A stretch of 64,000 bases of DNA, from positions 4,499,501 to 4,563,500 of the forward strand of contig JALGQZ010000013.1 of assembly GCA_023105745.1 (NCBI GenBank), given 5' to 3'. The notes under the pieces were generated by a model, which worked only from the letters and a program-made list of their open reading frames with translations, was not told the DNA's origin and made no database searches. The DNA is from Austropuccinia psidii (taxonomy: Eukaryota; Basidiomycota; Pucciniomycetes; Pucciniales; Sphaerophragmiaceae). The position numbers were made by a program, and so were the translations under genes. Shown here one piece after another: positions 30,761-58,578 of the stretch (position 1 is the first letter of the stretch; each line of letters begins with the position of its first letter).

Positions 30761-31179
30761 CTAAATTTCATGAAATAACGGCTTTATCATTACCAGCAGT
30801 CCACATGACAGAACTTTGTTATCATACAATCCACAGTTACCTTCTATTTCTTCTTCAGATATAACCAAGTGTCCATCATCAAAACCAACAGCTTTATAAA
30901 TATTCAGATGCGGCCAATCTGGTAAGAAATTCACATCAATCTTCAAAGTTTTTAAGATCAGAAAGTTATTCTTCAGTATGCTAGATGGCTCAGAGACTTT
31001 AAAAATGCTATTAATAATACCAAATCGTCGTGAGTTGCCCCTCAGAAAACATATCACACTGTTGCTGACATTTTTGGATTCAGTTGAAAATATATTGTTC
31101 CCAATATTAATGTTTGAAACTGGAAAATACCAAGGTGAGACAATCCTTGAAGTGGGAGGACTTGTGGGTTGCACAGTAG

Positions 31180-31943
31180 TGTCACAGGGGCTCTTCGAAG
31201 TGAAGAGGGCCTGGCACTCAGTAAACTGGGACTCACTTATGGAGGGCTCAAAGGTATGATAAGAATGGATACACTTAAGAGTGTTAAGGATGAATTACTA
31301 AAAGAATAAATATAAGAAAAAAGCAGCAACAAAGAAATAAGAGTAAGAATAGAAGAGCCAACCACAAACAAGTCCAAGTCCACTGTTTCAACCTGTCAGA
31401 ATGGAAAGAGAAGGGTTAATAAGGATATGGCCACCCAACTCATACTGTACAGGCGAAGAGAGAAAATGCAAAGACTAACTTAGAATTAAATAATTATAAT
31501 ACCCAAATATAAGGATAAGAATAATTATAAAATAATAAATAAACTAAATTAATTAACTGGGGAAAAGTCCCCAGGGGGGAGAAAGAGGGGCTGGTATATG
31601 TGAGAATCACCAGCCCTGATCCAGAGGAAGAATTTTCATGAGAATATTTGATGATTGAATTGAGTCTGGCCAATACAGGTCCTGTACGGCTGTACAGAAC
31701 CTGTACAAGAGGTGTGGTGTATTTGAGTGATCATACAGTTCCATGTTGGTGTATTGAAACTGTATTGGGTGAATCCAACCTGTACAGGTGTTGACAGGCT
31801 GTATGGATGTACCAAGCTGTATGCATGTTTCAGAATGAAGATTGCTGAAACTGAATGCTGATGCAGATACTGGATTTGCTGATTTGGGGTGTTTGAGTGG
31901 GTGTATGAATGAATACCCTTACCCCTGATGGATGGTTGTTACA
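31180..31943 (-). repeat. 3' LTR of element E
   Basis: 764 bp. On the plus strand it runs from TGTCACAGGGGCTC to GGTTGTTACA, and is nearly identical to 40763-41526. It holds the CTGTAC-rich upstream part (31674-31822), a TATA-like ATATAC near 31595-31600 (minus) and the AT-rich start-site candidate at 31545-31558. Confidence 0.92.
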
Positions 31944-31961
31944 GTATCCCCCTCTTGAAAC
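31944..31961 (-). other. Polypurine tract of element E
   Basis: On the minus strand AAGAGGGGGATAC directly precedes the 3' LTR. Confidence 0.75.
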
Positions 31962-32524
31962 TGGTGGGCTCCTGAACACCATAATACCCTGCCACTGTTG
32001 AGTGGCATCTCAATATCCCCACATTTTTTCAAAAAAATTTCTTTTTAATTTTCTTTCCTCTTGACCATTATCCTGAAAATCCTTCATTACTTCTTCCCTG
32101 CCAAATTCAATTGATTCCCCCCTTTTTCCAAGCTTGAGTGAGTATTCCTTCCAGAATATGCCATTCTTTTCTTTTGATTCAATCAGCCATGCCTTGGGAT
32201 GTGGCCTTGGGATATATCCCAGAATAAAGGCCATTGAGCACTTGTGCTCAAAAATTGGTGCCCAATGAGTATATGACTTGTACTCATTGGCCTAGACTTA
32301 ATCCAATGAATGAATGAAACTTTCCTCCAAGGGGTCTTGTCCCCATTATCCAAGGAATTGGCCTCAGACAGCCCTCCAAGTGGTTTTTGGGCTGTGGCCT
32401 CCATCCTGAGTGATCTTGATGCAATTTGCTTTTTATGGCCTTTTTCGCCTTGTTGGGTGTTTTAGTGATTGGGGCATTTTTTTTGATTTTTTGGCCATAA
32501 TAGGCCTTTTTTGAGTCTTTGGGG

Positions 32525-32610
32525 TCCTACGGTCCGCGGGCCGTGGACCGTACGCCGCGGTCTGCGGTCTGCGGTCCGTGGACCGTACGCCGCGGTCCGT
32601 GGGGGCTATT
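32525..32610. repeat. GC-rich 35-bp direct repeat
   Basis: The segment CCGTGGACCGTACGCCGCGG occurs at 32541 and again at 32576, with GGTCTGCGGTC between them. Inverted GGTCC/GGACC pairs make it strongly self-complementary. It stands out in an AT-rich element and lies about 350 bp upstream of the antisense gene, in a promoter-like position. Confidence 0.8.
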
Positions 32611-32951
32611 GGAGGCCCCCAGGACCAAAATGGAGCCCCTGGGCCCAAATTTGCTGGGGACCCAGGGTGACCAAGGGGCCCAGAAATGGCCCATTCCCAA
32701 ATTTCCACCATATATGGCCTGGACCCATTGAAGGGGTCCAGGACCATCAAGATCTTGGCCTCCCCCAAAGTTGCAGGGGAGGCCCTGGGTGATGCGTTCA
32801 GCCCCAAAGGGGTGTGAACCTTCACCTTAGAGGCTTTGAGGTGGGGCATAATTGAGTTATGGCCCCATTTCCTTGAGTCAAATTTCTTTTTCTTGATGTG
32901 GAGTGGATTGATTCTGACGTCTTGAATCTTCTGCTTGCATATTCTTCAGTT

Positions 32952-34192
32952 ATGAGTTCCAAACTGACTGAACTCACTGAATCTTCCCCTTCTGCACCGC
33001 CACTGTCTGTTCTTCATGGTTCTGGCGTCTTCAGTCAATTGTCTTCTCCCTCCATGGCGTCTTCTGGCCATTTTGACCCCTCCCAAACATATGATGGGTT
33101 CAGAGCAGTTGAAGTTCTTGATCCTGCCTGTACTGAGTGTTTGGCCAGGGGTAAGGATTGCTTTCAACATTACAATCCTTGATCGTCAAAATGCCATTTC
33201 TGCTTTATTGGGAAGAAGCCATGCCGCCGTACCGGATCAACTTTGTCCCAGGTCAGGAGGCACTTATGGAGTAGGAAGGATGGGCCTTATGGGCAGGAAT
33301 TCCCCATTCTTGAGGAACCTACCCCTGATGCCACTTCTGGATTTTCTCAATGTGAGTGATTTGCATTTCTTGGTTGAAATGATGCTGATATTTTGATGTA
33401 GTGACTGGTTCCAGGCAGAGGGATGTGGCCAGATGGACTAATGTTGGAGGGCCCATTCCAATTGGTGGTAGGCCCATACACTACAGCTCAGAAATCCCAA
33501 TTTCAAGGACCGATGCTGATGGAGTGGTGAAAGTAGTGAAAAAACTAAGAAGAATTGTTTATTCCCCAACAGATCCAGATGCTGAAGGAAGTGATGAGTT
33601 GGATGGTGAAGAAGTTCAAGTTATTCCTAATTCAAGTGGCCATCCATCCAGCAATTCCTCTTCTCAACCTCTTGCCAACACCAGATTCCAAAGCCAAGTG
33701 ATTCCCAGCACTCCAAGAACCTTCCAACCAATGCTTGCTTCCATTCCTACAACCCTTCCTCCTCCTTCACCAACTACTTCCCACACCACCAGGCCTGCCT
33801 TGAATCCAGCAGTAAGACCATCTCCAGTTCAACAGCCCCGAAACTCACCCATAAACACCTCCCGTCAACTCCAACCTGTGGCCAGCTCCAGCAGAAGAAG
33901 AGATGGATTGTCTCCTTTGCCGTTTCCTGCTGCTCAAGTTTTTTAAAGAAGAGAACGTTGGCCTATCCGGGTTACCAGAGAAGATCCCAACACGGCTAGT
34001 GAAAATCAAGATGCTGTGGCCAGATTATTCAGGAGGTTTGATAGAAATAGCAGAGAGGTGATTATGTATGCCAATGACAGGACTATTCCAGGTACTGCTT
34101 TTGAAGAGATGGCTGCAAAATTTGCCTGGTATGAAGATGAGTTGATAAATGATTTCCAGAGAACTTTTGATGACTTGGGTAGAGATAACTAG
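32952..34192 (+). pseudogene. Antisense accessory gene of element E
   Basis: It lies between the end of pol and the 3' LTR, on the strand opposite to gag-pol. Exon 1 is 32952-33351, then a 50-nt intron (33352-33401, donor GTGAGT, acceptor TGTAG), and exon 2 is 33402-34192; about 396 codons. A Ser-rich head is followed by a Cys cluster (CTECLARGKDC, then SKCHFCFIGKKPC), a conserved-looking block (LTGSRQRDVARWTNVGGPIP), a Pro/Ser-rich middle, and an acidic, helical end (MAAKFAWYEDELINDFQRTF). Two in-frame stops, TGA 33180-33182 (probably Arg CGA) and TAA 33944-33946 (probably Gln CAA), are single C-to-T changes, and coherent sequence continues past both. I recall similar proteins annotated in rust genomes as hypothetical. 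The function is unknown; a zinc-bound Cys cluster is inferred. Confidence 0.65.
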
Positions 34193-34499
34193 TTTTCCTT
34201 TTCCTTGTTTGTGTTTGGTTTGACTTCTATCCCCACTCTTATAATTACTAAAAAATAAAATAAAAAAGATAATGGAACCTCCCAATACATGATTTGGGGA
34301 GGGGATGCTGCTGCTTTAAAGAAATAAAAGAAAGAAAATTATACAAGTAAAGAAAGAAAGAAAAATAAAAGAATTAGAGAAAATGAGAGTAAAGAAAGAA
34401 ATAAAGAAAAATCCTGATGGTTGGTCCTTCTTGTGGTGAGTTGCTTGATTTTGGCCAATAAGTGTCTGAAAAATGAAAACCAAGCATTTTGATGCTCAC

Positions 34500-34968
34500 A
34501 GAGTGGCCAAGGTAATGTTTTACAAGAAGTAGAACCCTCAGGGATGCATACCATGACATGGAACTTACTTTCATAACTTCCACTCCCCACCAAGCACCAT
34601 AAAATTGAAAATAATTGCCATAAATGACTTCTGAGATGAATTGCCATAAATGACTTCTGAAATGAATTGCCGTAAATGACTTGAAGTAATGAATGTCTTG
34701 AATTATGATGATTGGCATAAAATGAAATGATAATAAAGAAAGAAAATGAAAAAATAAAGAAAGAAAACATTGGGCCATATCTTGATAAGGTCCAAATGGA
34801 GGGTATTGATTTTGTATGCTTCCTGAACCTGTCCAAAGAAATGACAAGTGCTCACATAGTGGCCAAGGTGATGCTTACAACAACATATGGGTAGAATACC
34901 CCCTTAAAGGTGCATGCCAGGAGAGGAACTTACTTTCATAACTTCTTCTCCCCACCAAGCACCATAAA
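34500..34968. repeat. Duplicated segments downstream of element E pol
   Basis: A segment at about 34535-34605 (GGAACTTACTTTCATAACTT, CTCCCCACCAAGCACCATAAA) recurs at 34920-34970. Between them a 26-bp unit with TTGCCATAAATGACTTCTGA repeats about two and a half times (34617-34690). The copy nearest pol contains the pol stop region, so part of the 3' end was duplicated. Confidence 0.7.
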
Positions 34969-37900
34969 TCAAACTCTTGAGGTATTTGGACCAGGCTTGT
35001 CGGGATACAATGAATGGAAATCCTTGACAAGGTCTGGTGAGTTGGTAATGTTGGAAGATGGTTCCCAAGTGGTTCTTTCTGGGTCTTCACTGAATCCTTT
35101 CCACTCTACAAGATACCATAATTTACCTCTTTTGAGTTTTGAGTCCAGAACCTGAGCCACTTCCCATTCTTCTTGCTCCTCCACTAAAACTGGTGGTGGC
35201 TGCAATTGATGATGATTTGGGATAGTTGAATGCTTGACTGGTTCTAATAAGGACACATGGAATGCAGGGTGAACTGTCTTCCATTGCTGAGGCAACTTGA
35301 GGTGATATGCATGGCTGCCAATCTTCTTAAGAACTTCAAAGGGTCCCAACCATCTTTCTGATAATTTCTTGGTGGGTCTTGTTGTCTTGATGTTCTTGGA
35401 AGCCAGCCATACGTTGTCCCCAGGTTGGAAATCAGGTGGAATTGCCCTATTTCTATCTGCATACTTCTTGAATCTCCTTATTGCTGACTCTAATTCTTCT
35501 TTGACAACTTGCTGTACTGATTGGAGTTTTGTTGATAACTTTCCAGCAGGTGAGTCTTGAGAAATATGGATTGAGTCAAAGCTGGGATTTCCTCCATAAA
35601 TGGTGAAAAAGGGTGATTGCTTGGTAGATGAATGTTCTGCATTATTATAGGCAAATTCAGCCAGAGGGAGCCAGGTGTACCAGTCATCTTGATGATAGCT
35701 GACATACATCCAAAGGTACTGTTCTAGTATCTGATTTACCCTCTCTGTCTGTCCATCTGTTTCAGGGTGAAAGGCAGTTGAAAGATCTCTTGATATCTTG
35801 AGCTGCTGACACAATTGAGTCCAGAATGATGAAACAAATAAGGATCCCCTATCACTGACAATGCTGACTGGGAGTCCATGCTTGGAAAATACATGACTAA
35901 TGAATATTTGAGCTAAATCCAGAGCAGTGATTGTACCATAAGCTGGAATGAAGATTGCCATTTTTGAGAATCTGTCCACAACTACTAAAATTGAATCAAA
36001 GTTGTTGGACAGTGGCAATTGAGTGATAAAGTCCATTGATAATGAATTTCAAGGACCAGACGGAATTGAAAGAGGCTTGAGTAATCCAAACTTCTTGTGA
36101 TGAATGTTCTTGTTTCTTGAACATTGCTGACATGAGGACACATAGTCCTTGATGAATTGATTCATGCCAGCCCAATAAAAATCCCTCTTGATGAGCTTGA
36201 GGGTCTTCTCCTGGCCAGGATGGCCAGCCAATGGTGAGTCATGATGCTTTTGAAGAATATCGAGTTGAAGTTCTTCATTGCTTGTAATTACCACTCTATC
36301 TTTGAATAATAATAACTTGGCTTGAGGTTCAAGAGAATAATCTGGAATTGATTCACCTCTTGCTAGTTGCTTGAGTATTTCTTTATAATCTTTGTCTTGC
36401 CATACTTCTTTTTGAATTTTGTCAACTAAATCTGAGAAAATTTCCACTTTGATTGAGAAGAATCTTGACTCTTGAATTCCATCTTGCTTAAGAACTTGAT
36501 GAAAAGTTTGAGGATTCTTGCTGATGAAGTCCACCCCCCTCTCTGGGTACATGTCGTCCCGATGTGACAAGGCATCTGGTAAAGTGGCCAGCCTGCCTGG
36601 GCGGTAAGTAATAGTGAAATGAAATTCTGAGAGAAATTCAGCCCAACGGGCCTGACGACGAGTAAGAACTTTGGAAGACATGAAGTACTGCAAGGAAGAG
36701 TGGTCTGTCAAGACCTCAAAAGGATTGGAAAGAGAAAGAAGAAATGCTCTCCAGCGCTTGAGAGCCCAAACTATGCCAAGGAGTTCCTTGTCATGAATTT
36801 CATAGTTGAGCTCAGCTGGTAAGAGCTTGCAACTATCAAATTCAATGGGATGCTTTCTATAGTCATTCACCTGACTCAGTACGGCGCCCAATGCATAATC
36901 AGAAGCATCAGTCTCTACAATAGTAGGCAGAGATGGATTAAAGTGAGATAAGATAGGAGCAGAGGTGAAAGCTTCTTTGAGTGCTTGAAACTGACTAAGA
37001 GCTTCCTCATTGAAGATGAAAGGAGAATCTTTTTTGAGAAGGGAAGTGAGAGAAGTGATTTTTTTGGAATAATTTTTAATGAAACGACAATAAAAATTGG
37101 CAAAGCCAAGAAAGGATTGAAGAGCCTTGATGTTTTTGGGCTGAGGCCAATTGAGGATTTGCTGAACCTTTGAAGAATCCATCTTGAGGCCATCACTTGA
37201 AACAACATAGCCCAAGTATTCCACACTTGAGGCATGGAATACACACTTGGAGGCTTTGGCAAACAGATTATTGTCCCTCAGTCTTTGGAGGACAGAGGTC
37301 ACATGTTTGACATATTCCTCCTCAGAACTGGAAAAGACCATAATATCATCTAGATAAACCACAACAAACACATCCAAAAAATCTGCAAAGATATCATTTA
37401 CTAGATTTTGGAAAGAAGCAAGAGCATTGGTCAAACCAAATGGCATGACCAAATACTCATAACTGCCATATTTGGTTCTAAAGGCAATTAAGTGCTCATC
37501 ACCCTCTTTGATTCTCAGAAGGTTATATGCACCACGCAAATCTATCTTGGAGAAGATAGTGGAACCGTTGAATACGGTAAGAAGCTGGTTCATAGGAGGA
37601 ACAGGGTATCTGTTCTTCCTAGTGACAGCATTGAGTTTGCGGTAGTCAACACACAAACGAAGACCTCCATCCTTTTTCTTGACAAAAAGGACAGGTGCCC
37701 TGTTGAAGAGGAGCTTGGTCTAATGAAACCTTTCTCTACATTCTCTGAAATGTAGGCCCGCAGTGTTTCTGACTCTTGATTTGATAATGAGTAGATAACA
37801 CCAATTGGAGGTAGAAGACCCTCCAATTCAATATGGTGATCACAGGCGCGGTGTGGAGGGAGTTTCTCTGCTTTCACCTTGGAGAATACATCCAAATAAT

Positions 37901-38696
37901 GGTGATAAGCAGGAGGAACAACCTTCAACACAGTTTCAATTTCTTCTGGCTCTTCCTCCTCATCCCACTGCTCCTCCAGGGATGCATGAAAAGATAAGGG
38001 AGGAAGGTCCATATCCCCTTGAAAGAGATGAAGTGAAGATATGGCAACATCTTCTCCAACATCCTTTATCTCTTTGAAGACTTCATCTCTTAATGGAAGT
38101 AATGACTGAGAGGGAATAATGGAAGGGATATGGACAGAAGAAGGAAGGGAAGGCGTCTTAAGTTCACCAACCAGAGCAACACTGTTGACAGCAGTGGCTA
38201 AGTCATTACTAGTAGAAGGAATAATACCACTAGAATCCTTATGATTAGAATCATAGGTGATCGATCCATTTTTCCAATCAATAATGGGACTAAAATGGTA
38301 AAGGAAATCATAGCCCAATATCAGGTCTTCTCCCTTGGGTGAATCTATGATAAAGAAGTCCCATTCAAAGCTTGGGAAGGAAGGCAAGTCAACTACCCAC
38401 TTGGTATAATGGGTGATGAACAAGGCAGGGGATTCATTAGAATCCAAAATGAAAAGGGGAATCTTTTCAGGGAGCTCTGACAGAGTCAATGAGTACTTGA
38501 GAACAAAATTCTTTGCAATAAAAGAGTTTGTAGCACCAGAATCAATGAGAATACTATAAAAAATATCAGATACAGAAGAGAAAATAAGAAATTTTAAAGA
38601 TTTCTTGACACTAGTATTCAGAGTGCACAATTGTGCTCTTGAAGGAAATAAGTGGGAACCATTGAACACATCATGATCCCCACTCAGGCTTTTCCC
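34969..38696 (-). pseudogene. Element E pol (PR-RT-RH-IN-chromodomain), two lesions
   Basis: In the -1 frame after gag: protease ILIDSGATNSF and LILGYDFLYHF; RT with CVDYRKLNAVTRKNRYPVPP, MPFGLTNALASFQ and YLDDIMVFS; RNase H ETDASDYALG and ALKRWRAF; integrase zinc region HHDSPLAGHPG...CQQCSR, core SMDFITQLP, VVVDRFSKMAIF, IVSDRG and AFHPETDGQTERVN; C-terminal chromodomain WEVAQVLDSK, LWYLVEWKGFSEDPERTTWE. The lesions are a 1-base loss in a G-run near 37718 (STG/APVLFVKKKDGG) and a TGA near 36045, where the Trp of GPWNSLSMDF is expected. Otherwise open over about 3.7 kb, so it was probably active until recently. Confidence 0.9.
38651..38696 (-). promoter_or_regulatory. Probable -1 ribosomal frameshift signal (gag to pol)
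   Basis: In the gag frame the heptamer reads G GGA AAA (38690-38696), the X XXY YYZ form. Gag ends two codons later (GCC TGA). After a 5-nt spacer, AGTGGGGA (38677-38684) can pair with TTCCCACT (38651-38658): seven Watson-Crick pairs and one G-U, with an 18-nt loop. The -1 frame is open from the heptamer into the protease. All three parts of a standard signal are present. Confidence 0.75.
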
Positions 38697-40045
38697 TGCT
38701 TGCTAGGGAAGCCTCTTGATGATGACCCAGGCTTGTTCTGAGGTCTCTTGAAGCATTTTTCAATTGGGTGCTTTCCACCACAATAAGTACACAACCCCTC
38801 TTTAATCCTCCTCTCCTTTTCAGAACCGATTAACTTATTGTCCTTATTGAGGAGAGCAGCAAGGGGCTTGTCCTTTGAAGATTTGAATTGCTTGCCCTTC
38901 TTGTTCTTCTTCTGGTGAGGCCTCTTTGAAGATGAGTTTTGAGGAGGCCTAGACTGATTGGATCCAATGACTGGAGGCTTCTTCTCTTGATTGCCACCCT
39001 TTTCCTTTTGCCTCTCATGATATCTTGTGTCTAATTCTAAGGTGACATTCATAAGTTCTTGAAGAGTATCAAAAGTTCCAGGGTGAGAAGCCAACTGATC
39101 CAATAATCTTGATGCCAATCCTCTTCTGTAAACATGGATATAAGCTCTTTCCCCCCAATCTCCAATTCTTGACATTAAGCTTCTGAAATCTGCTATGTAC
39201 AAGGAAACATGACCACTTTCCTTCATCCTCAAATTGTCCAACTCCTGTTCAGCTTTCCTGACTTCATTGGGGTCACCAAACAGAGTGAATAATTGAGATT
39301 CAAACAATGGCCAATTATTGAGGAGGTAGGAAGGGTCTTCATTGGAAATATTTGAGAGGTAAGGTTCAATCCACTTGCCAGCTCTACCAGTGAGAAAAGA
39401 AGTTGAGTAAAGAACTTTCTTCCTGTCAGAGAAGAAATTTGCTGGATCATTATGAAAGATTAATTGACAGGATTGGATAAACCCTCTCAATTTATGAGCT
39501 TGAGTTCCATCAAAAGAATCAGGTGCCTTCATGGATGGAGTCTTGAAAGCAGGGGCTTTGGAATTGTCCCTGGGAGCAACTGCTTGAGTGAGTTGCCCCA
39601 TGAATTGAGTCATCTGCTCCATCATCTTGAGGAGACTTGGATCAGTTTGAGAGACAAGAGGTTGACTAGAAAGGGCTAGATTAGAACCCTGAGGCACCTC
39701 TGGAGCATTTGCCAAGGCATCTGCCACTTCAGTTTCCCCAGAATCTTCCTCTTCCACAGACTCTTCCCCCTCTTCATCTTCAACTTCCCCTTGTCTTGCT
39801 CTTGCCCCTTCAGACATGCCAGGGTAGCCACCCAAAAGTCCAGAGAAAGATCTTGATCTTCTAGATTTCATTCCACCTCTTCTTGATGGTGCTTCTCCTT
39901 CCATTGGTGATCCTCTGTCCAAATTTGCACTCGGTTGATGAACTGATGGTGTGCGGTCAAGAGGAGCCCTTGCTGTAGGAGTGAGAACAGCTTGAATTCT
40001 TTGGGATCTAGTATTTTTGGCTGGGGGACTATGCTGAACTGGCAT
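38684..40045 (-). CDS. Element E gag polyprotein
   Basis: An intact 453-residue frame. It has a basic, Ser/Arg-rich N-terminus, an acidic segment (EVEDEEGEESVEEEDSGE), a capsid-like core (PDSFDGTQAHKLRGFIQSCQ, FLTGRAGKWIEPYL, SQLFTLFGDPNEVRKAE, MKESGHVSLYIADFRSL) and a zinc knuckle CTYCGGKHPIEKC near residue 420, followed by a Lys/Arg/Ser tail. Gag forms the particle and packages element RNA. The start at 40045 is the first Met of the open frame and fits the leader. Pol follows by a predicted -1 frameshift. Confidence 0.9.
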   Translation of the reverse strand: MPVQHSPPAKNTRSQRIQAVLTPTARAPLDRTPSVHQPSANLDRGSPMEGEAPSRRGGMKSRRSRSFSGLLGGYPGMSEGARARQGEVEDEEGEESVEEEDSGETEVADALANAPEVPQGSNLALSSQPLVSQTDPSLLKMMEQMTQFMGQLTQAVAPRDNSKAPAFKTPSMKAPDSFDGTQAHKLRGFIQSCQLIFHNDPANFFSDRKKVLYSTSFLTGRAGKWIEPYLSNISNEDPSYLLNNWPLFESQLFTLFGDPNEVRKAEQELDNLRMKESGHVSLYIADFRSLMSRIGDWGERAYIHVYRRGLASRLLDQLASHPGTFDTLQELMNVTLELDTRYHERQKEKGGNQEKKPPVIGSNQSRPPQNSSSKRPHQKKNKKGKQFKSSKDKPLAALLNKDNKLIGSEKERRIKEGLCTYCGGKHPIEKCFKRPQNKPGSSSRGFPSKQGKA

Positions 40046-40762
40046 TTTGAAATAATGAAATAAAACTTGATGGTATTAAGGACAATCAAAACTTGGCCAA
40101 ATCAATCACAATAAAATCTTGATTAATCTTGAGGAATCAATTCAAATCTTGAGGAATCAAATTCAATCAACAGTCAAATAAATTCAATCAATCAACAATC
40201 AATTAAAATCAAATATCAATAATCTTGAGGAAATCAATAATCAATTAATATTCAATCAATAATCAATCAATAAATGTCTTCAATATGAAATCAAGTCTTG
40301 AGGAATCAATCAATCAGTTCAAAATCTTCAGAAATCAATTCAATATCTTGATGAGTCTAATCAAATCAATAATCAAAATCAATTCTTGAGGATCAATCAA
40401 TATCTTGAGAGTTCAAAGTCAATAAATCCAATAAATCCTGAATCAATAACCCAAATGAATCCCAATGAATAATCCAATCAATTAAACCAATCAATAATTC
40501 CTAGATAAAACCTGAATAAGAACACAGAAAAAATTTAATTGATAAAAATAAAATGAAGTGATGAAATGGTCAGCAATGATTAAGAAAAGAAAAAGAATCA
40601 ATTTTCATAAGAATGAAATGAGTGAGATGAAAAATTGATAAGAGAGAAAAATCATGATCATTAAGGATCATAAAGTCATGAAGAGATCATAATTTGATGA
40701 ATAGAAAGAAATGAATATAAATGAATGAAAAGAAAGAATCAAATATGAGTTAATTAATTTAA
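40046..40762 (-). other. Leader of element E
   Basis: About 700 bp between 5' LTR and gag, with no gene. It is built of irregular repeats of TCAATCAA and TCTTGAGGAATCAA on the plus strand. This is a long untranslated leader that may carry packaging signals (inference). Confidence 0.7.
40748..40761 (-). other. Self-priming primer site of element E
   Basis: One base after the 5' LTR, the minus strand reads TAAATTAATTAACT. Its exact complement AGTTAATTAATTTA occurs inside the LTR (41128-41141; also 31545-31558), about 40 nt after a TATA-like ATATAC. No TGG-type tRNA site is present. Chromoviruses of the Tf1/sushi type are primed by the 5' end of their own RNA, which this fits. The core TTAATTAA is palindromic, which weakens the statistics. 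Confidence 0.55.
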
Positions 40763-41526
40763 TGTCACAGGGGCTCTTCGAAGTGAAGAGGGCCTGGCAC
40801 TCAGTAAACTGGGACTCACTTATGGAGGGCTCAAAGGTATGATAAGAATGGATACACTTAAGAGTGTTAAAGATGAATTACTAAAAGAATAAATATAAGA
40901 AAAAAGCAGCAACAAAGAAATAAGAGTAAGAATAGAAGAGCCAACCACAAACAAGTCCAAGTCCACTGTTTCAACCTGTCAGAATGGAAAGAGAAGGGTT
41001 AATAAGGATATGGCCACCCAACTCATACTGTACAGGCGAAGAGAGAAAATGCAAAGACTAACTTAGAATTAAATAGTTATAATACCCAAATATAAGGATA
41101 AGAATAATTATAAAATAATAAATAAACTAAATTAATTAACTGGGGAAAAGTCCCCAGGGGGGAGAAAGAGGGGCTGGTATATGTGAGAATCACCAGCCCT
41201 GATCCAGAGGAAGAATTTTCATGAGAATATTTGATGATTGAATTGAGTCTGGCCAATACAGGTCCTGTACGGCTGTACAGAACCTGTACAAGAGGTGTGG
41301 TGTATTTGAGTGATCATACAGTTCCATGTTGGTGTATTGAAACTGTATTGGGTGAATCCAACCTGTACAGGTGTTGACAGGCTGTATGGATGTACCAAGC
41401 TGTATGCATGTTTCAGAATGAAGATTGCTGAAACTGAATGCTGATGCAGATACTGGATTTGCTGATTTGGGGTGTTTGAGTGGGTGTATGAATGAATACC
41501 CTTACCCCTGATGGATGGTTGTTACA
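40763..41526 (-). repeat. 5' LTR of element E
   Basis: 764 bp. It matches 31180-31943 except for about two substitutions seen by eye (GTTAAGGATG/GTTAAAGATG and AATAATTAT/AATAGTTAT). It is flanked by GGTAG at 41527 and transposase coding sequence. Confidence 0.92.
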
Positions 41527-43825: not shown

Positions 43826-45995
43826 TGTAAGGTTTGTCTATGAAACTCTTGATAATAGTAACAATATCAAGAGTACTATGACTGTCCTCAGTAGAAAAAT
43901 ATAATATAATGAAATATTATAACCACAAATTTAAATATAATTATTAAAAATAATTATATATAAAAAAATAAATTTAATTATTATTATAAAAATATAATAA
44001 TAAAAAAGAATATAATAATTATAACAAATTATAATTATTCTATTATTGTTATAGTCACTGACAATTATAACAATAAGAAGTGTGAAGCTCTTAATGAGAC
44101 AATTACACGTGGAAAATAGAAATATTTAACCACTTATAAATAATATAAATATTATTTATAAAAAGAATTAAACACACACTGTGCAGAAATAATTCTTTAT
44201 AGAATAAAATTCTATATAAAAAAACTATTACTAGATAAAAAAATATATAGAACTTTAGAGAAAGATTTATTTAATACAATAAGTCAAATACAACAGTTAT
44301 TATATTAAATAAAGATTTATAAGTTAAAAACACGCCAAAAATCAATAAATTTAAAGATAAAACAACTTTTCATACTATAAATTATGATTAAAGAGTTTTT
44401 GAGAGGAATTTGTGGATTTTAAAAGATATTTAAGATGATAATTTTATATAATAAACTTTATTATAGATGATTACAATAATAATCTGAATTCTATGACTTC
44501 AATTCTTTAATTTAATAAATAAAGAATAAAAATAACTTAAGAATTACTTTAATAATAAGATTTTATATTTAATAAAACTTTACCTGCTTAAATGTCTAAT
44601 ATGATTTGATTGATAATTGATTGATTGATTGATGGACAAAAACAGTGATGAAAAGACTCTTTTTATGTCTACAGAGAAGCTCTCATGATTCATAATGGAT
44701 GTAGAGGGCGTGCTCAGGTCAAAACTGAAAAACCATGCTTAAAAATTAAATTCTTAACTTAAGGCAACTTATTTTTACTTCCAATTTAAAGTTACCAGTG
44801 TTATTCTTAACTCTAAGTAACTTTAATCCTCATTGAGTTTAATTATTTTAAGTTTTAATATAAAATAAGTTTATTTATATTAAAGTTCATCACATGAACA
44901 ACATAAAATTAGAGTTTCAAGCAGAAATCTCTTAAACTCAATTTTTAATTAATTTTTAAAGAAATCATAATTTTCTTTGAGCTTAATTAAAAAGATAACT
45001 TTCCAGGCTGATTACCCAAGAAACTTATTGATAAAAGATACTTAAAATTTAATTTATATGTGGATAATATTAAATTCTAAGCTGTGTGAAATTTTCAAGC
45101 AAATCCATTAAGATTTGGATTTTTAATGAATTTTTGAAGTTATTGCTATTTTTCCACGAAAATAGCAATACACACCAAACCTTAGCTTTTGATAAGGTTT
45201 CAATGCTTGGAACCTTAAGGTTTTAAGCTTATTTAAGCTTTGACATTTCTTAAAACCTTGATTTCAAGCCTGCATATTGGGATTTACCCTTTGGCAGCTT
45301 GAAATTCCTGTCCAAATTGGGATAAAACCAGTTTAAACCTTAAGGTTGGATCAAAGTCTAATCTTAAAGTTTAAATAAGGTTGAAAATCCTCCAATACAG
45401 GTGGACAACCTTAATTGAATCATTGCAGATCCAAAAAGTTGGGTACCCCAGCTCTATTTGGTCTTTTTCCTTTGTCCCACCTTTTTGCGTGGATTTTGCC
45501 CATTTATTTATTTAAAGCCATACTATGGCCTTAAACCCTTTTAAATTGAGCTCACGCAGGATTTACATTCTGTATGGCAAATCCTTAGCCAATTCAGTAA
45601 ATATACACCACACCTCAATTTTAACTAAAATTTTGGTAAAGTTGCATAAACCTTATGTAACTTTAAATTTAAGCTTAATTAAGCTTAAATTTAACAATTT
45701 TAAAAAAATGTTAAAAAAGTTACATTAGTACTGTGAGATTCTTAAATCTTCTAATAACACAAGAAATAAGTGTTTTTGGGTATAACACCCTATGGGTGTA
45801 CCCTAGGTTATTTTTGGTGTAGAATCCAAAAATGACATAATAATTATAACTTTGTTTATCCAAAAAAAAGTTATACTTATTTTTTATTATTTTTTATTTT
45901 AAATTCAACTAAAAAGTCTGTTTAAGACAAATTTAATTGTTTATAAAATCTTTTGTGGCCTTATGGGTATGTTATACATACCTCACAGGCTCACA
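43826..45995 (-). repeat. 3' LTR of element D
   Basis: On the plus strand it runs from TGTAAGGTTTGTC to CAGGCTCACA. It matches 52602-54781 with a scattering of substitutions and small indels, the largest being about 12 bp near 44268/53040. A 67-codon frame present in both LTRs is not regarded as a gene. Confidence 0.92.
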
Positions 45996-46007
45996 ATCCC
46001 TACCACC
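45996..46007 (-). other. Polypurine tract of element D
   Basis: On the minus strand GGTGGTAGGGAT adjoins the 3' LTR, preceded by a T-run. Confidence 0.6.
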
Positions 46008-46133
46008 AAAAAAAAAAATTGTACTACAATTTTTCTTCTGTAGTATACCCCAAGTTATTTGGGGGGGTATAATCCACTGTCCAACCTCTCTACTTATACT
46101 GTTCAAGTATGTAAAGCACACAATTCAAACTTT

Positions 46134-49100
46134 TTATTGAGGAATTGGTCTTCTCTCATGTCTGAATCTTCTGAGAAACTTTTGGGAATCAGGTATTTTA
46201 CTTTCTTCAACCCACTCATCTTCATGTTGTGGATTTCTGTACCTGACTAAGTATTCTCTTTCATTTTTACCCCTAAGTATTCTTTCTTTTAAGACTTTCA
46301 GTACTTTATTTTCCTCACTTGGTTCAAGTGGGGGTACTTCCAAGGGTGTTTCATTTCTTAAAGGAAATAATTCCTTATCACTTGATGTGTAATGCTTTAC
46401 AAGACTGACAGGAAAAGTTGGGTGTTTGTTTCCTAACTCTCCTGACAGTTCTACTTGTACTGCATTTGTCCCATGAAGGACTTTAATAATAAATGTTCAT
46501 GCAAAGGAATCTTTCAATTTCTTTGTACCTTTGATATTATTAAAGTTCAAGGTTGAAACTAGTATTAAGTCCCCTACTTTGAATTCTGGTGTCTTATGAC
46601 TCTTATCCCATTTCTGCTTAGCATATTCAAAGGCATCATTCATGCTTTTATTGGAATGATGTCTCACTTTATCAAGCAGTAGCTTAAAGCTTGAAGCAGT
46701 TGGATGAATGTCAACCAGATCTTTTTTCAAAGTATCAACTGGAAGTTTGGGGTTCCATCCTTTTTCCAACATTGCAGGAGTCTTGCCTGTTGAAGCATGG
46801 ATGGAGGTCTTGTAGGCTAATTCCAATGCTGGTATAAGAGTACACCAATCATGGGTGAAGCCATCAGAATCTTTAAACTCCAGGCCATAAGCACAAAATC
46901 TTCTGATCATGTCCTCAAGGGTTTGAATCATTCTTTCTGCCAGTCCATCTGTTTGTGGATGGTAGGCTGTTGAAAATGATAATTTTGTACCCAAAAGCTT
47001 ATGTAGATTAGTCCATAAGGCTGATGTGAATTTTGGGTCTCTATCACTAATGATATTCTTCAAGAGACCAGTATGGGATATGACTCTGTTCCAAATCAAA
47101 AGAGTTGTATCCATAGCTGTTTCATCTTTATGACATGGTAAAAAGATTGGTGTTTTGCTATATCTGTCCACAATAACAAGGCATGCATTGTAACTTTTAT
47201 CACCTCCAGGTGGTAAGGAAGTTACCCAATCCATATGAACCACTTCCCATGGGGTACTTGGTTCTTGAATATGGATCATTCAACCAAATCTTTTACCAGT
47301 AGCTTTATTGGCTTTCTGGCATCTATCACAACTATGAAAGTACTCAATGACATCTTTCTCCAAGATGGCCACCAGGCACATGTCTTAATTCTTTCCATTG
47401 TTCTGTCTTCAGACAGATGTCCAGAATAAATGTTATCATGGCATTCTAGTAGTATTGTGTTAATCAACATTCTACTACATAGGACCATAACACATGTGTG
47501 TTTAGATCTATGATATAGTATACCATCAAACAAATGAAATCTTCCATTATCATAAGATGTTTTCCAAATATCATCCAGAGAATTAGCCAAGGCTACATCT
47601 TTACAATCTTTGTCAAGTAGAGCAGTAAGAATATGACAATTCTTATCTTGCTTGTAGCTTTCTCTAACTTCTTCAAAGAATTCTGTTCCAACATCTGTGA
47701 TATTAATTCCTTCAATTGGAATTTGAGGTTCTGCACTTGTAGGAACATAGGCAGGATTATCAGGTGTATTGGGTAATGCCCATCTACTTAAGCCATCAGC
47801 ATTCTTATGAATATTTCCAGCTTTATGTACTATGGTCATATTGCCTCTATACTCCTGTATAGCAATCTGCCATCTTAACATGTGTCTGTTTGGATTCTTC
47901 ATGTTAAGAAGTGATTTTACTGCATTACAATCAGTAATTACTTCAAACACACTACCATCAAGATAGTAATGAAGTTTTTCCAGAGCCCAAACAAGGCAAA
48001 GGCACTCCATTTGGCTAGCTCCATACCTTGCCTCAGTAGGTTTAATTTGTCTTGAAATGAAACAAATTGGACCTTCATAAGGCGTGTCATTGACCATTTG
48101 AACTTGATGAAGAGCAGCTCCTAAACCATCACCACATGCATCAATATACAGCTTGAAAGGAAGTTTCCAGTCTGGCATCAATAATAATGGTGCATTGGTC
48201 AAGGCATACTTGATTTTATCATATTCTTGAATTCTCTCCTGTGTCATTTCAAAAACAGTTTGTTGATCACAAATTCTGTATAATGATCTGGCATGGATTG
48301 CCAAATCTTTAATGTGTTGCCTGTGATAACTGGCAAATCCTAAGAAAGACATCATTTCTTTTTTGTTCTGGGGCATTTGTTTCAGTAAAACTGCAGCCAC
48401 TTTGTTTTTGTCAACACCAAGGCTCAGTCCTGATACTACATGTCCCAGAGCGTTTAACTCATGAAACCCAAAATTACATTTTTTAAGAGAAATTTTCATG
48501 TTCACTTGTAGAATTTTCTTAAGTACTAATGAAAGTCTTTCTAAATGTAATTGCCAGGTTTCTGAACAAATGATAATGTCATCTATATAAATGATTAACC
48601 ATCCCTCTGATAATTCATGTGGGAATATGGTATTCATCATTCTTTGATAATGAGAGGGTGCATTTTTAATACCAAAAGGCATCCTCAAATATTCATAAAT
48701 ACCACAATGAGCAATGATCCTCAATAATTTCCTAGCATGAGGTGTTAAAACATTCTGATGGAAGCCTTTAAGAGCATCCATGGAAGTAATAAATTTTGCT
48801 TTGGATAATTGAGTCAAAGTCTCATGGATTCTAGGGATTGGATACCTGTCTGGAATAGTATAGGTATTCAATGCTCTAAAATCCCCAACCATCCTTGACT
48901 TATCATTATACAAAGTAATGATTACTGGAGTTGTGACTTCCACTTCCTCATTGTGTCCAACTTTTCTAAGAACTCCCAGTTTCATTAGTTCATTAATATG
49001 ACTTTCTAATGCTTCTCTAGCCCTAGGGCTAGCTGGGTAAGCTGGTCTTCTTAATAGTGGAGGATAAGGTCTCTCCACATTAAGCATGATATCCACTTCA

Positions 49101-51073
49101 TGGCCTTTTAAAGCCCCAAGTGGTTCATTATCAGAAGCAAAGGCTTCTCTAAATTGAAATAAAATTTCAATAAGTTCTTCCTTCATTTCTGGTGTTAATT
49201 CAGGACTAATTTGTGCTTCACTTAACTTATCTGACACAAATCTTTCTTTATTAACATTTTTTACTTGCTTAATGACAGTAATTTCTTTTCTTTCTGGAGA
49301 AAAAGCAAATTTTTGCCTGTTATTTTCCCCTATAGTGAAATATCTGTCCTTATGATTATTAATATCAATACCATAGATATTGAGATAATCATTTCCAAGT
49401 ATAAAGTGTTGTGAAGTACAATTATTCATAACAACAAATTCAGCTTTCAATCTCATACTTCCTGCAGGATGAGGAAATATTATTGCTGCTTCAAATATAC
49501 CCAAAGGATGCATATTCTGACTAGCACTGCTGAACTTTGAACCTTCAATTGGCATCAACTTGTCTTGCCAATTGGTATAAATTTTGTCAAGATAATCTTT
49601 TCCAACACAAGTGCAAAAAGCTCCTGAATCAAGATGTATCTTGGCTTCTGTGTTATTTATCACAATATTAGTGATACAAGATGACCCAGCTGTATACCCT
49701 TTACCTCTGGCAGGTTTGGTTTTTTGCATTTTGGCATCTTGCACATGTATGAGATCCATACATTCATCACTGTACTGTGGTAAGTGAGTATGTACCTCAG
49801 TCACCTCAAAAGAAACATTAATATTTTCTATACTATGTTCTTCTAATGCTTCTTCTTCTTCTGAAGGTTCAGAATCACTTTCATGTAAAGTTACATCAGT
49901 TTCTTTTGTGTCTTCCACTTTTTCAACATTTATCTCATTGACTCTTGTCTTTTTTGGACAAGTGTTTGCTAAATGAGATGTACTTCCACATTTATGACAT
50001 TTCAAAGGAGGTCTGTCATGTGGTTTATTTGGTTTTGAAATTGGTTTCACACTAGTCTTTTTGTCTATTGGGGGTTTATACCAATTTCTTCCAATTTTTG
50101 TTCTAGTAGTAATATCCTCCATAGCATTGATATAATCTTCTGTAGAGCAAGGCTCAATACATCTGCTTCTTATAGCATGCTCAAGGTCACCACCACACTT
50201 TCTTAATATCCTTTTATGTACCATTGGTTCAGACATATCAGGATGAAGGGCAGTTAATCTGTCCTTCTGCTTAAGAAACCAGGTCATGGGCCTGTCCCTC
50301 TCAATATTAAAAATGGCTTCTTCAAAAGAATTTTTCATTCTAAATCTCCAGGAATCATTTGCCCATTTGGAAATAATTTGTTCTTTCCACCAAGGCCAGG
50401 AATGTTTACCATGGTCTTGCCTCATTTTATAATACCATTTCTTAGCTGATTTGGTAAATAATGAGTGTAATCTGGCACTTATGTATTCATCTGGTATGTT
50501 AAAGTCTTCTTTGAACATATCAATTGTCTTCATAAATTCCATATGATTATATTCTCCTTCACCACTGAAGGTTGGCCATTCCTCTAATCTAGGAATTTCT
50601 TTGAAATTGCAAGCAGTTTCTACATCATTACTTGAAATTGTATGATGTAAATCATTATTCAAGTTAAGAACATTTCTGTCAAGAAATGGTGTGGATTGCC
50701 TTGGCAATTCATTTTGTAGTGATATATTATTAATACTTGATTGAATATCTTCTTTCAATTCAAGTCTTGCTTTATCACTTTTTTCCAATTGTTCTTGAAA
50801 AAGAGCTGCATTGTGACCAGTTGAATTTTCCAAGTTTCGAACTTGTATTTTCAATTCTCTTAACTGTCCAGTTATAAAAGAAATTGAATTTTCATCTGGT
50901 TGATTGAGTAAGGTAACTTTATGCTCAAGTCTTTCACAGATTTGCGTCAAAGACAAAATATTTGCCTTATTAACATTTTCAAGGCCAATAATGGTCTTTT
51001 GTTGGTCTTTTACTTGTAAAATCTCATTACCCAACTTCTGTTGGACATAATCAAATGCTTTAAATTTTGTCAT
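46134..51073 (-). pseudogene. Element D gag-pol, nearly intact
   Basis: One 1265-codon frame (47276-51073) covers a coiled-coil head, a capsid-like core ([20 protein letters not shown]), an intact zinc knuckle [14 protein letters not shown], protease [12 protein letters not shown] ([28 protein letters not shown]), RNase H ([18 protein letters not shown]) and the integrase zinc region. A one-base loss in an A-run near 47355 shifts into the frame with [12 protein letters not shown] at 47280-47282 precedes the integrase core ([32 protein letters not shown]), and a TGA at 46497-46499 precedes the end with a chromodomain-like NEREYLVRYRNPQHEDEW (46134-46343). Three lesions in all; the catalytic residues are kept. 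It is the best reference for the decayed copies A and B. Confidence 0.92.
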
Positions 51074-51120
51074 AATTTCTTTATTACAAGATTCAAAGTG
51101 AGTTACAAGCTTTACAAGGT

Positions 51121-52067
51121 CTATTTCTTTGGAAAGGATTGGTTCAATCTTTCCTCCTCCTTAATTTTGAATTCCATCAAAGTTCTTGCCATATTGAACA
51201 CATTGTCCATGGCTATCTTTTCCTTCTTTGGAATTCTGTAGTTCTGTGGGTAAGGCTTGTTCCACTTGGGCTTTGCCTTTCCCTTTGCCTTTTGCTTGCC
51301 CTTCTGGTTGGTCTTTGGGGCTTGCTTGGGCTTGTTTGGCACTTGTTGAGGCGGATTTTTGCTGGTGGATGCTTGAGGAGCTTCCACTTGGCTGTTGTCC
51401 TTGCCTTGGGCCAACTTCTTCTTCTGATCCTCTGATAACATGCTTTGGTTTTTCAACCAAGCTTTTATCTGTTGGACTTGTCCTTTGACAGACATTGGTG
51501 TCCAACCCAACAGAAGATCTTCTGTCTTTTCTGGCCCCATGAACTTCTTCACCTGAAGATAAGAGTTAATGGTGCCTATTCAAAGACTTGGAAGGAGTTC
51601 CCACTCTTGTTGTTTTGACGCCAGGAACCAGTTTTTCCATTGGGATTGATAAATTTCCACAGTTGCCTGTTGTAAATGGTTCAGGTCTAACAGAAATAGC
51701 AGTTATGTCAGCTTCTGGACTCTCAAGAAGAGGTTTAAAGGTGCTGGCTAACCTTTGGGAACTGGTGGAAGTTCTGGCATCCTCCATTTGTGCCTCTCCT
51801 CTGGGAGGACATTCTTGCCTTTTGGATTTATGGCTGGAATGTTCTGGTCCAGATCCATTTGATTGGATGGAGTAATTGCTTCCACTTCTAGTAGGAGTCG
51901 TTTCACGTCAATTTGAATAAAAAATAGAGTAAAAAATGGATTAAATTCACCTGCAGGACCTTTAAAGGGCTCTTTGGTTATTAAACCCCTTGGTGCTGGG
52001 CTGGTTTGAATTTCAATACTTGACTCTGAGGATTCAGAGTCTGAAGAATTTTCTCTGATGGAAGACA
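51121..52067 (-). CDS. Element D ORF1 (N-terminal gag-like protein), spliced model uncertain
   Basis: Upstream of gag-pol. An acceptor CTCTAG ends at 52068, and the next bases TGTCTTCC would give ATG with an upstream A. Frames: an acidic Ser-rich head ([14 protein letters not shown]) at 51748-52067, a middle part at 51566-51787, and 143 codons at 51121-51552 with a Lys/Pro/Gln-rich tail ([20 protein letters not shown]) and a closing helix. The frames differ and no complete splice model was settled. ORF1 of elements A and B matches in order. It is separate from the zinc-knuckle gag that follows about 50 nt later. The role is unknown; the basic tail suggests nucleic acid binding. Confidence 0.55.
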
Positions 52068-52579
52068 CTAGAGAAATTAAAAATATAAGTTATTTTATCA
52101 AACAATAAAAATAACTTATAAACTCAACTTATTGAATAAAGTTGTTTTTATGTAATTTATGGCAAATTACGTCAAAAAATAAAGAAAAATGTCTAAGATA
52201 AAAGAAAAAAATATTTTTAGTAAAGATTTTTTATTTGATTTTTTATTTTCTTTAAAGAAATAATAATTATGCAATTAACAAGTTATTAATCAAAATTATA
52301 TTTATTATTCACTTTATACTAGAATAACTCAAAGAATAAATTTCAAGTCTGTGATGTGAAAGAGCCACTGGTTAGACAAAAGGGATTTATTCCAAGTCAC
52401 TCAATAGTATATTGTTTCAACTAATATTCTTAAGAAAAAATAACTTTATTAATATTATAAAGATTATTTATAAGGGATAAGTCCCAAAAAAGCCAATATT
52501 AAGACAAATATGGCAATTTTACGTCAAAAAACAGTAAAATAAGGTCTATAATATGATTTATGTCCCAAAAATTGGCTTA

Positions 52580-52599
52580 AAATCACGGCCAGGCCCCCA
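52580..52599 (-). other. Primer binding site of element D
   Basis: On the minus strand TGGGGGCCTGGCCGTGATTT begins 2 nt after the LTR end ACA. It is the same site as in elements A and B with a few differences. Confidence 0.65.
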
Positions 52600-52601
52600 A
52601 A

Positions 52602-54781
52602 TGTAAGGTTTGTCTATGAAACTCTTGATAATAGTAACAATATCAAGAGTACTATGACTGTCCTCAGTAGAAAAATATAATATAATGAAATATTATAGCC
52701 ACAAATTTAAATATAATTATTAAAAATAATTATATATAAAAAAATAAATTTAATTATTATTATAAAAATATAATAATAATAAAAAATATAATAATTATAA
52801 CAAATTATAATTATTCTATTATTGTTATAGTCACTGACAATTATAACAATAAGAAGTGTAAAGCTCTTAATGAGACAATTACACGTGGAAAATAGAAATA
52901 TTTAACCACTTATAAATAATATAAATATTATTTATAAAAAGAATTAAACACACACTGTGCAGAAATAATTCTTTATAGAATAAAATTCTATATAAAAAAA
53001 CTATTACTAGATAAAAAATATATAGAACTTTAGAGAAAACTTACTTATAAGATTTATTTAATACAATAAGTCAAATACAACAGTTATTATATTAAATAAA
53101 GATTATAAGTTAAAAACACGCCAAAAATCAATAAATTTAAAGATAAAACAACTTTTTATACTATAAATTATGATTAAAGAGTTTTTGAGAGGAATTTGTG
53201 GATTTTAAAAGATATTTAAGATGATAATTTTATATAATAAAATTTATTATAGATGATTACAATAATAATCTGAATTCTATGACTTCAATTCTTTAATTTA
53301 ATAAATAAAGAATAAAAATAACTTGAGAATTACTTTAATAATAAGATTTTATATTTAATAAAACTTTACCTGTTTAAATGTCTAATATGATTGGATTGAT
53401 AATTGATTGATTGATTGATGGACAAAAACAGTGATGAAAAGACTCTTTTTATGTCTACAGAGCAGCTCTCATGATTCATAATTGATGTAGAGGGCGTGCT
53501 CAGGTCAAAAATGAAAAATCATGCTTAAAAATTAAGTTCTTAACTTGAGGCAACTTATTTTTACTTCCAATTTAAAGTTACCAGTGTTATTCTTAACTCC
53601 AAGTAACTTTAATCCTCATTTAGTTTAATTATTTTAAGTTTTAATATAAAATAAGTTTATTTATATTAAAGTTCATCACATGAACAACATAAAATTAGAG
53701 TTTCAAGCAGAAATCTCTTAAACTCAATTTTTAATTAATTTTTAAAGAAATCATAATTTTCTTTGAGCTTAATTAAAAAGATAACTTTCCAGGCTGATTA
53801 CCCAAGAAACTTATTAATAAAAGATACTTAAAATTTAATTTATATGTGGATAATATTAAATTCTAAGCTGTGTGAAATTTTCAAGCAAATCCATTAAGAT
53901 TTGGATTTTTAATGAATTTTTGAAGTTATTGCTATTTTTCCACGAAAATAGCAATACACACCAAACCTTAGCTTTTGATAAGGTTTCAATGCTTGGAACC
54001 TTAAGGTTTTAAGCTTATTTAAGCTTTGACATTTCTTAAAACCTTGATTTCAAGCCTGCATATTGGGATTTACCCTTTGGCAGCTTGAAATTCCTGTCCA
54101 AATTGGGATAAAACCAGTTTAAACCTTAAGGTTGGATCAAAGTCTAATCTTAAAGTTTAAATAAGGTTGAAAATCCTCCAATACAGGTGGACAACCTTAA
54201 TTGAATCATTGCAGATCCAAAAAGTTGGGTACCCCAGCTCTATTTGGTCTTTTTCCTTTGTCCCACCTTTTTGCGTGGATTTTGCCCATTTATTTATTTA
54301 AAGCCATACTATGGCCTTAAACCCTTTTAAATTGAGCTCACGCAGGATTTACATTCTGTATGGCAAATCCTTAGCCAATTCAGTAAATATACACCACACC
54401 TCAATTTTAACTAAAATTTTGGTAAAGCTGCATAAACCTTATGTAACTTTAAATTTAAGCTTAATTAAGCTTAAATTTAACAATTTTAAAAAAATGTTAA
54501 AAAAGTTACATTAGTACTGTGAGATTCTTAAATCTTCTAATAACACAAGAAATAAGTGTTTTTGGGTATAACACCCTATGGGTGTACCCTAGGTTATTTT
54601 TGGTGTAGAATCCAAAAATGACATAATAATTATAACTTTGTTTATCCAAAAACAAGTTATACTTATTTTTTATTATTTTTTATTTTAAATTCAACTAAAA
54701 AGTCTGTTTAAGAAAAATTGAATTGTTTATAAAATCTTTTGTGGCCTTATGGGTATGTTATACATACCTCACAGGCTCACA
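52602..54781 (-). repeat. 5' LTR of element D
   Basis: 2180 bp, matching 43826-45995. The minus-strand start TGTGAGCCTGTGAGG shares the terminal motif of the A/B LTRs. It is directly followed by CTGGA and transposase coding sequence. Confidence 0.92.
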
Positions 54782-55218
54782 CTGGACTTGATCAGCAGGT
54801 TTAGGGCGGGGTTGAGAATGCGTGAAGCCCGGCGGGGTATATTATACCTTAATGTTAGAATGGCAGATAATATCATTCCAAGGTCTTGTGGAGGAAGGGT
54901 TTGACTGCTGATGTATGGTTTCTGTGCAATTGAATTGAGCCCCGGTGCTGTGGAGAAGGTGCTTTGGGTCAATGGTGAATAATCAGCTGGGAATATTTGA
55001 TCCAAAAGAAGTTGTGGGCACTCAGATCCTGATGCAGAAGTAGGGATGTTTGGAAGAGATTTGGGTGCAATGGTTGATTTGAGCTTTTTAATGTGCTGTT
55101 TATATTGGAAAGGTGTGAAGGCAACTCCAGGCCTATCACCCTCAGGGGAAGAGTGTGTTTGAGTTGAGCAGTGTTGACACATGCATATACGCATTGAGGA
55201 ATAGCGGCAGGTTGTCAT

Positions 55219-58239: not shown

Positions 58240-58578
58240 CTTAGTAATATAAATGTATAGCACCGTTACAAATTAACATTTTGTGAATTATTTGTGCAGG
58301 TGTAATACAATCTGAGTATGATTTCTTAAAGTTCCAAAAACTTGCTACATATGTCAGAATATAGACAATATGAATTGGAATGTATCACCGTCTCCCTTAG
58401 AAATAAGACTCTATTGCTCATTCTCATTGAGGAAATATTGAAGGAGTTCAATCCAAGTCATGGTGTTCATAATTGTGGACCTATGCCAAGGTGAACAAGA
58501 GTTATCAACTTGGTCAAACACAAATTATATAATATCAGTAAGGCTCACACAGTTAATGATTTTTTCTTTTCTTGGACC

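What the first reader, a model, noticed from the sequence alone, without database searches (positions are those of the whole stretch)
30761..55218. One transposase gene split by two retrotransposons, frame restored when both are removed
Seen: element D (TSD CTGGA) and element E (TSD CTACC/CTACT) lie in the same minus-strand open frame. Deleting each element and one target copy joins the flanks in frame (..IKSS/ISSSGG.. and ..LDTT/VQPTSP..). A single intron and the Tnp2-like blocks then fall in the right order. This recovers a gene of about 1020 codons spread over 24 kb, which standard annotation would miss.
Basis: partly seen in the sequence, partly recalled or inferred. Interest (0 to 1): 0.82.

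Follow-up and report, generated by a model that had tools for sequence, protein, structure and literature searches.

The report
Fungal jumping gene broken by retrotransposons
A large cut-and-paste mobile element of a plant-rust fungus has had at least three copy-and-paste elements land inside it, two of them in its transposase gene; this is real but ordinary decay, and the more unusual thing is that relatives of the element also carry genes that could undo the fungus's silencing of mobile DNA.

Summary
The two insertions are real and exactly placed. LTR retrotransposons at 31180-41526 (target copies AGTAG/GGTAG) and 43826-54781 (CTGGA/CTGGA) interrupt one minus-strand transposase gene. Without joining anything, relatives in the same genome give the empty sites: 19 of 20 fetched copies for the first, 20 of 20 for the second, each with exactly 5 shared bases. 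But 'frame restored' is wrong: the window pieces also carry two stops, a frame break and a Tyr at an invariant Asp. The gene is part of a ~21-kb EnSpm/CACTA-type transposon with 46-bp inverted repeats (CACC...) and 3-bp target duplications, hit by a third retrotransposon at 62897-75817 and itself sitting in a Ty3 pol gene. Relatives carry an SNF2 ATPase and a TET/JBP dioxygenase in fixed order. TET+ EnSpm elements are published (PMC12730594); its main text does not mention SNF2. The host is very probably Austropuccinia psidii. Nested decay is ordinary; the SNF2+TET cargo is the point of interest.

The parts
30045..62896 (.). window part of one EnSpm/CACTA-type DNA transposon, with retrotransposons 1 and 2 inside it; it resumes at window-equivalent 75818, outside the window
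   Evidence: blastn against 20 paralogues and against copies A and B
30045..30090 (+). left terminal inverted repeat, beginning CACCAGGG; the right one lies outside the window and was not reached
   Evidence: start shared with the 16 paralogue ends printed, one of which (L022) has T for the first C; matching inverted copy at the other end of copies A and B
54787..55218 (-). transposase exon 1, 5' piece
   Evidence: tblastn with intact copies
41858..43825 (-). transposase exon 1, 3' piece: Transposase_21/Plavaka region, with two stops, a frame break and Tyr at an invariant Asp
   Evidence: Pfam, tblastn, alignments
41775..41857 (-). intron, 83 nt, GT..AG
   Evidence: sequence in the window and L022; 83 nt in the 15 of 20 copies where the model fitted
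41527..41774 (-). transposase exon 2, 5' piece
   Evidence: tblastn
30761..31179 (-). transposase exon 2, 3' piece with the stop codon
   Evidence: tblastn
31180..41526 (-). retrotransposon 1, Ty3 type with chromodomain; LTRs 31180-31943 and 40763-41526; target copies 31175-31179 AGTAG and 41527-41531 GGTAG
   Evidence: LTR comparison, Pfam order capsid, protease, RT, RNase H, integrase, chromodomain, empty site in 19 of 20 copies
43826..54781 (-). retrotransposon 2, Ty3 type; LTRs 43826-45995 and 52602-54781; target copies CTGGA at 43821-43825 and 54782-54786
   Evidence: LTR comparison, Pfam RT, RNase H, integrase, empty site in 20 of 20 copies
62897..64000 (+). 5' end of retrotransposon 3 (whole element 62897-75817 in window-equivalent coordinates; 2116-bp LTRs, 3 differences; target copy ACGG)
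   Evidence: aspartyl protease match in one internal frame
56153..57780 (+). second transposon gene region, conserved in copy B, function unknown
   Evidence: open frames, 90-97% identical in copy B; no Pfam match above cut-off
59235..60675 (-). SNF2-family ATPase gene carried by the transposon, with one stop in the part compared
   Evidence: Pfam SNF2-rel_dom, tblastn, fixed position beside the transposase elsewhere
29001..30044 (+). pol of an older Ty3 retrotransposon, cut off where the DNA transposon begins
   Evidence: 91% identical to window 16300-17343 over its whole length up to 30044; that copy matches reverse transcriptase

Best explanation
The region is one degenerate copy of a large (~21 kb) EnSpm/CACTA-type DNA transposon of a rust fungus, very probably Austropuccinia psidii. 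It inserted into the pol gene of a Ty3 retrotransposon and was then hit by three LTR retrotransposons. Two of these landed in its transposase gene, each duplicating 5 bp, and one landed near the middle of the transposon, duplicating 4 bp. Shown: insertions, target duplications, empty sites in relatives, gene model, inverted repeats and 3-bp duplications of two relatives, and SNF2 and TET/JBP cargo in fixed order. Inferred: that intact copies move by RAG1-like DDE cut-and-paste and that the SNF2 and TET/JBP proteins help the element escape cytosine methylation. The window copy cannot make an active transposase; it could only move, if at all, with transposase made elsewhere.
Against: The right end of the window copy was not reached, so its own 3-bp duplication is untested. 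The organism is inferred, not given. The 20 relatives were picked mostly from the best-scoring rows, not at random. The first Asp of the proposed triad is 15 of 16 in one alignment and not among the columns conserved at 90% or more in the other. One of three SNF2 dN/dS values is above 1 (1.39), so selection on that gene is not established. Copies A and B are not fully intact: TET is interrupted in A and SNF2 has a stop in B. Whether the most numerous near-identical subfamily carries TET was not tested.
Confidence: 0.95

Rival explanations
1. One reading: an otherwise sound transposase gene that only needs the two inserts set aside.
For: Both junctions and the intron agree with uninterrupted relatives.
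Against: Two stops, a frame break and a lost invariant Asp in the window pieces themselves.
Confidence: 0.03
2. The flanking pieces come from different transposase genes brought together by rearrangement or assembly error.
For: The genome is repeat-rich and holds over a hundred scored copies.
Against: Matching target duplications at both inserts, collinear pieces, and empty sites with exact 5-bp overlap.
Confidence: 0.02
3. The transposase belongs to the Plavaka lineage rather than EnSpm.
For: Pfam Plavaka matches the window piece above its cut-off (29.3 against 26.3).
Against: The uninterrupted frame of L022 scores below that cut-off (24.2), and the CACC..GGTG ends differ from both published Plavaka end types. 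PMC12730594 places Plavaka-like rust transposases with CAC..GTG ends and 3-bp duplications in EnSpm.
Confidence: 0.15

Closest known systems
TET+ EnSpm DNA transposons of rust fungi (Kojima 2025, PMC12730594)
   Same: CAC..GTG ends, 3-bp target duplication, Plavaka-like transposase, TET/JBP gene, rust host (TET+ families from P. striiformis; related EnSpm families listed for A. psidii among others, the text not saying whether those carry TET)
   Different: an SNF2 ATPase gene is linked here; SNF2 has 0 occurrences in that paper's main text, and its supplements could not be looked up
Ty3 LTR retrotransposons, one of them of the chromodomain type (the two full inserts in the window)
   Same: TG..CA LTRs, 5-bp target duplication, RT before integrase; chromodomain in insert 1
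   Different: nothing notable
kinetoplastid JBP2
   Same: pairs a TET/JBP-type dioxygenase with an SWI2/SNF2 domain, said to give access to condensed chromatin (passages of PMC10057400)
   Different: one fused protein that makes base J in a protozoan; here two separate genes in a transposon. An analogy, not membership

Membership tests
EnSpm/CACTA (CMCT) DNA transposon | 5'-CAC..GTG-3' inverted ends | tested here: met
   46-bp TIR beginning CACC in copy A; copy B has TACC at its left end and GGTG at its right. The window copy's left end begins CACC; its right end was not reached
EnSpm/CACTA (CMCT) DNA transposon | 2-3 bp target duplication | tested here: met
   TGA in copy A and AAT in copy B, read by eye off the flanks printed; two copies only, the window copy untested
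[quoted passage not shown]
   in 16 sequences D320 15, D414 16, C433 and C436 16, H766 and H770 16, E790 16; in 18 sequences the second D and the CxxC are invariant, H, H and E at 90% or more, the first D not listed. Transposase_21 E 3.8e-15. Motif definition from PMC12730594; no activity assayed
EnSpm/CACTA (CMCT) DNA transposon | RAG1/Transib-like fold | tested here: met
TET+ EnSpm | TET/JBP gene inside the element | tested here: met
   2OG-FeII_Oxy_6 E 3.1e-45 in copy B; at 79496-80716, outside the window, in this copy
Plavaka | TGT..ACA or CATCA..TGATG ends | tested here: not met
   ends CACC..GGTG; definition from PMC12730594
Ty3 LTR retrotransposon (inserts 1 and 2) | LTR pair, 5-bp target duplication, RT before integrase | tested here: met
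   one of five bases differs between the two target copies of insert 1
LTR retrotransposon, superfamily of insert 3 | order of the pol domains | not tested
   LTR pair and ACGG duplication; of three internal frames scanned, one matches aspartyl protease and two match nothing; RT and integrase not looked for

The most novel reading that the evidence does not exclude
This transposon family carries a two-enzyme anti-silencing kit: an SNF2 remodeller that opens chromatin and a TET/JBP dioxygenase that oxidises 5-methylcytosine. It would be a transposon counterpart of the dioxygenase-SNF2 pairing in trypanosome JBP2, and could help explain how a DNA transposon multiplied in a genome that methylates its mobile elements.
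Probability: 0.35. Interest if true: 0.72.

Novelty: new variant of a known kind. Interest (0 to 1): 0.4.

Why it matters
The split gene is a clean, base-resolved case of nested insertion and shows that uninterrupted relatives in the same genome can test such claims without rebuilding anything. The wider value is the family: a high-copy rust transposon in which transposase, SNF2 and TET/JBP genes keep fixed order and near-fixed spacing. If the two extra enzymes act on the element's own methylated DNA, how transposons escape methylation in gigabase rust genomes becomes a testable question.

Tried and rejected
Considered and dropped: a Helitron (inverted repeats and a DDE-type transposase found instead); 62896 as the right end of the transposon (it is where insert 3 begins; the transposon resumes at 75818); the TSD mismatch as evidence against one insertion event (the first base is G in 16 of 19 empty sites, A in 2, C in 1, so one later change in one copy is enough).

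The second nucleus could not be tested: the held assembly appears to be one haplotype and has no relatives here.
Full report
What the window is. The window lies at C13:4499501-4563500 of a 1.015-Gb assembly in 84 contigs. Of 58 proteins matching the transposase frame, 14 are annotated as Austropuccinia psidii MF-1, the top nine among them, at 37-85% identity; the SNF2 and TET frames match proteins of the same source at up to 95% and 96%. I therefore write 'very probably A. psidii'.

The two insertions. The element at 31180-41526 has LTRs of 764 bp with 2 differences, begins TG and ends CA, and is flanked by AGTAG and GGTAG. The element at 43826-54781 has LTRs of 2170 and 2180 bp with 22 differences in 2168 aligned bases and 3 gap runs, and is flanked by CTGGA on both sides. 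Both are Ty3 type: RT precedes integrase, and the first also shows a capsid, protease and chromodomain.

Empty sites. I fetched 20 relatives (L009-L028) of the 116 places scored, mostly high-scoring rows, not a random draw. In 19 of 20, window 30777-31183, 41527-43825 and 54782 onward lie next to each other (L026 lacks the first part and some of the second; L016 has about 100 extra bases inside the second). At site 1, 19 of 20 show the uninterrupted sequence with a 5-base overlap; at site 2, 20 of 20 do. The first base of the first target copy is G in 16 of the 19 empty sites, A in 2 and C in 1, so the AGTAG/GGTAG mismatch needs only one later change. The whole 200-bp left junction of insert 1 occurs only here among 40 scored places of 1046 candidates; the other 39 match only the transposon side. 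The same search for site 2 did not complete.

The gene. Frames of copy L022 align to the window pieces in order and meet at both insertion points. A 1026-aa protein of Puccinia graminis also aligns piece by piece in order across both junctions, and a 799-aa protein of Phakopsora pachyrhizi across junction 2; residues right at the junctions are not covered. Allowing 3 mismatches, the junction-2 peptide lies in an uninterrupted frame in 20 of 20 relatives, junction 1 in 17 of 20 (not L013, L015, L026). A gene model with an 83-nt GT..AG intron fitted 15 of 20 relatives; six of these (L021, L023, L024, L025, L027, L028) read 1025-1026 codons without a stop, the other nine stop earlier. Of 116 scored places, 66 have an exon-1 frame of at least 836 codons (column, counted).

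The window copy is dead on other grounds. Within the pieces there are two in-frame stops, a frame break between residues 517 and 522 of the L024 numbering, and Tyr where the second catalytic-type Asp stands; that Asp is invariant in 16 of 16 and 18 of 18 aligned sequences. The claim that the frame is restored is therefore not supported. The copy differs from the state shared by at least 80% of 18-19 relatives at 90 of 6470 sites.

The larger element. Two copies followed to both ends, A (C10) and B (C5), measure about 23.4 and 20.6 kb; A holds a 2-kb insert that B lacks, which falls in its TET gene. Both have inverted repeats alignable over 45 bases (46 with the first base), beginning CACC in A and TACC in B, and 3-bp duplications, TGA and AAT, read by eye from the printed flanks. 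In window orientation copy B carries the transposase (minus), a gene of unknown function (plus), SNF2 (minus), a Cys-rich frame (plus) and TET/JBP (minus). Pfam gives Transposase_21 E 3.8e-15, SNF2-rel_dom E 6e-31 and 2OG-FeII_Oxy_6 E 3.1e-45; B's SNF2 has a stop. Gene linkage is not chance: from three truncated lists (116 transposase, 135 SNF2, 102 TET places), 17 transposase-SNF2, 11 SNF2-TET and 15 transposase-TET pairs lie within 30 kb in the same order and strand, none reversed or on opposite strands, and five transposase places have both partners. Random placement of the TET places gave at most 2 pairs in 2000 trials, mean 0.16. In the MF-1 annotation, SNF2 and TET proteins bear neighbouring tags on contigs of equal length twice in the two lists of 120 shown (O181_026360/026361 and O181_011375/011373).

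The nest. A third LTR retrotransposon begins at 62897 and ends at window-equivalent 75817, with 2116-bp LTRs (3 differences) and an ACGG duplication. Beyond it the DNA transposon resumes, with a TET frame without a stop over 407 aligned codons at 79496-80716. On the left, the transposon starts exactly where a Ty3 pol copy (29001-30044, 91% identical to window 16300-17343) breaks off. Insert 2 is older than insert 3 by LTR differences (Fisher p 1.5e-4); insert 2 against insert 1 is not significant (p 0.059), nor is insert 1 against insert 3 (p 0.61).

What is known. PMC12730594 (abstract, sections 10, 20 and 34, part 1 of section 24, and passages) describes TET+ EnSpm with CAC..GTG ends, 3-bp duplications and Plavaka-like transposases in P. 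striiformis, with related EnSpm families in other species, A. psidii among them. SNF2 does not occur in its main text. A search for TET JBP, transposon, SNF2 and fungi (at least 3 of 4 terms, 158 papers, 12 listed) showed no paper on the combination by title or abstract start, and none of the 12 held 'TET JBP'; dioxygenase with EnSpm, SNF2 and transposon gave 0 papers. Supplements and closed journals were not searched. PMC12774611 reports CACTA as the second largest TE class after Ty3 (passages) and about 89% repeats, so nested copies are expected. PMC12210899 and PMC8063080 were seen as passages only.

Verdict. A correct and sharp reading of two insertions in one transposase gene, over-read as a recoverable gene. 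As nested TE decay it is ordinary. As a door to a transposon family linking transposase, SNF2 and TET/JBP it has moderate interest.

Noticed in passing
62897-64000, continuing in L032 and L035: A third LTR retrotransposon, not part of the finding because it ends outside the window, interrupts the same DNA transposon.
   Followed up: yes
59235-60675; L029:8435-9301: SNF2 ATPase gene at near-fixed distance from the transposase (about 6.0-6.1 kb in 16 of 17 linked pairs, 8.1 kb in one).
   Followed up: partly
L036 and L031:1432-2655: TET/JBP dioxygenase gene; no stop over 407 aligned codons in the window's own element although its transposase is broken.
   Followed up: partly
56153-57780: Plus-strand gene region conserved in copy B, no Pfam match above cut-off; could be the element's second transposition protein.
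   Followed up: no
L029:4272-5090: Cys-rich frame between the SNF2 and TET genes of the transposon, partly conserved in copy B, no Pfam match.
   Followed up: no
62709-62896 and 30309-30466: Stretches of the transposon that occur repeated in some copies, so tandem repeats vary between copies.
   Followed up: no
29001-30044 and 16300-17343: Two related Ty3 copies; the first is cut by the DNA transposon, so the nest has at least three levels.
   Followed up: partly
places listed: Dozens of copies share identical scores, pointing to a recent burst of one subfamily; whether that subfamily carries TET was not tested.
   Followed up: no
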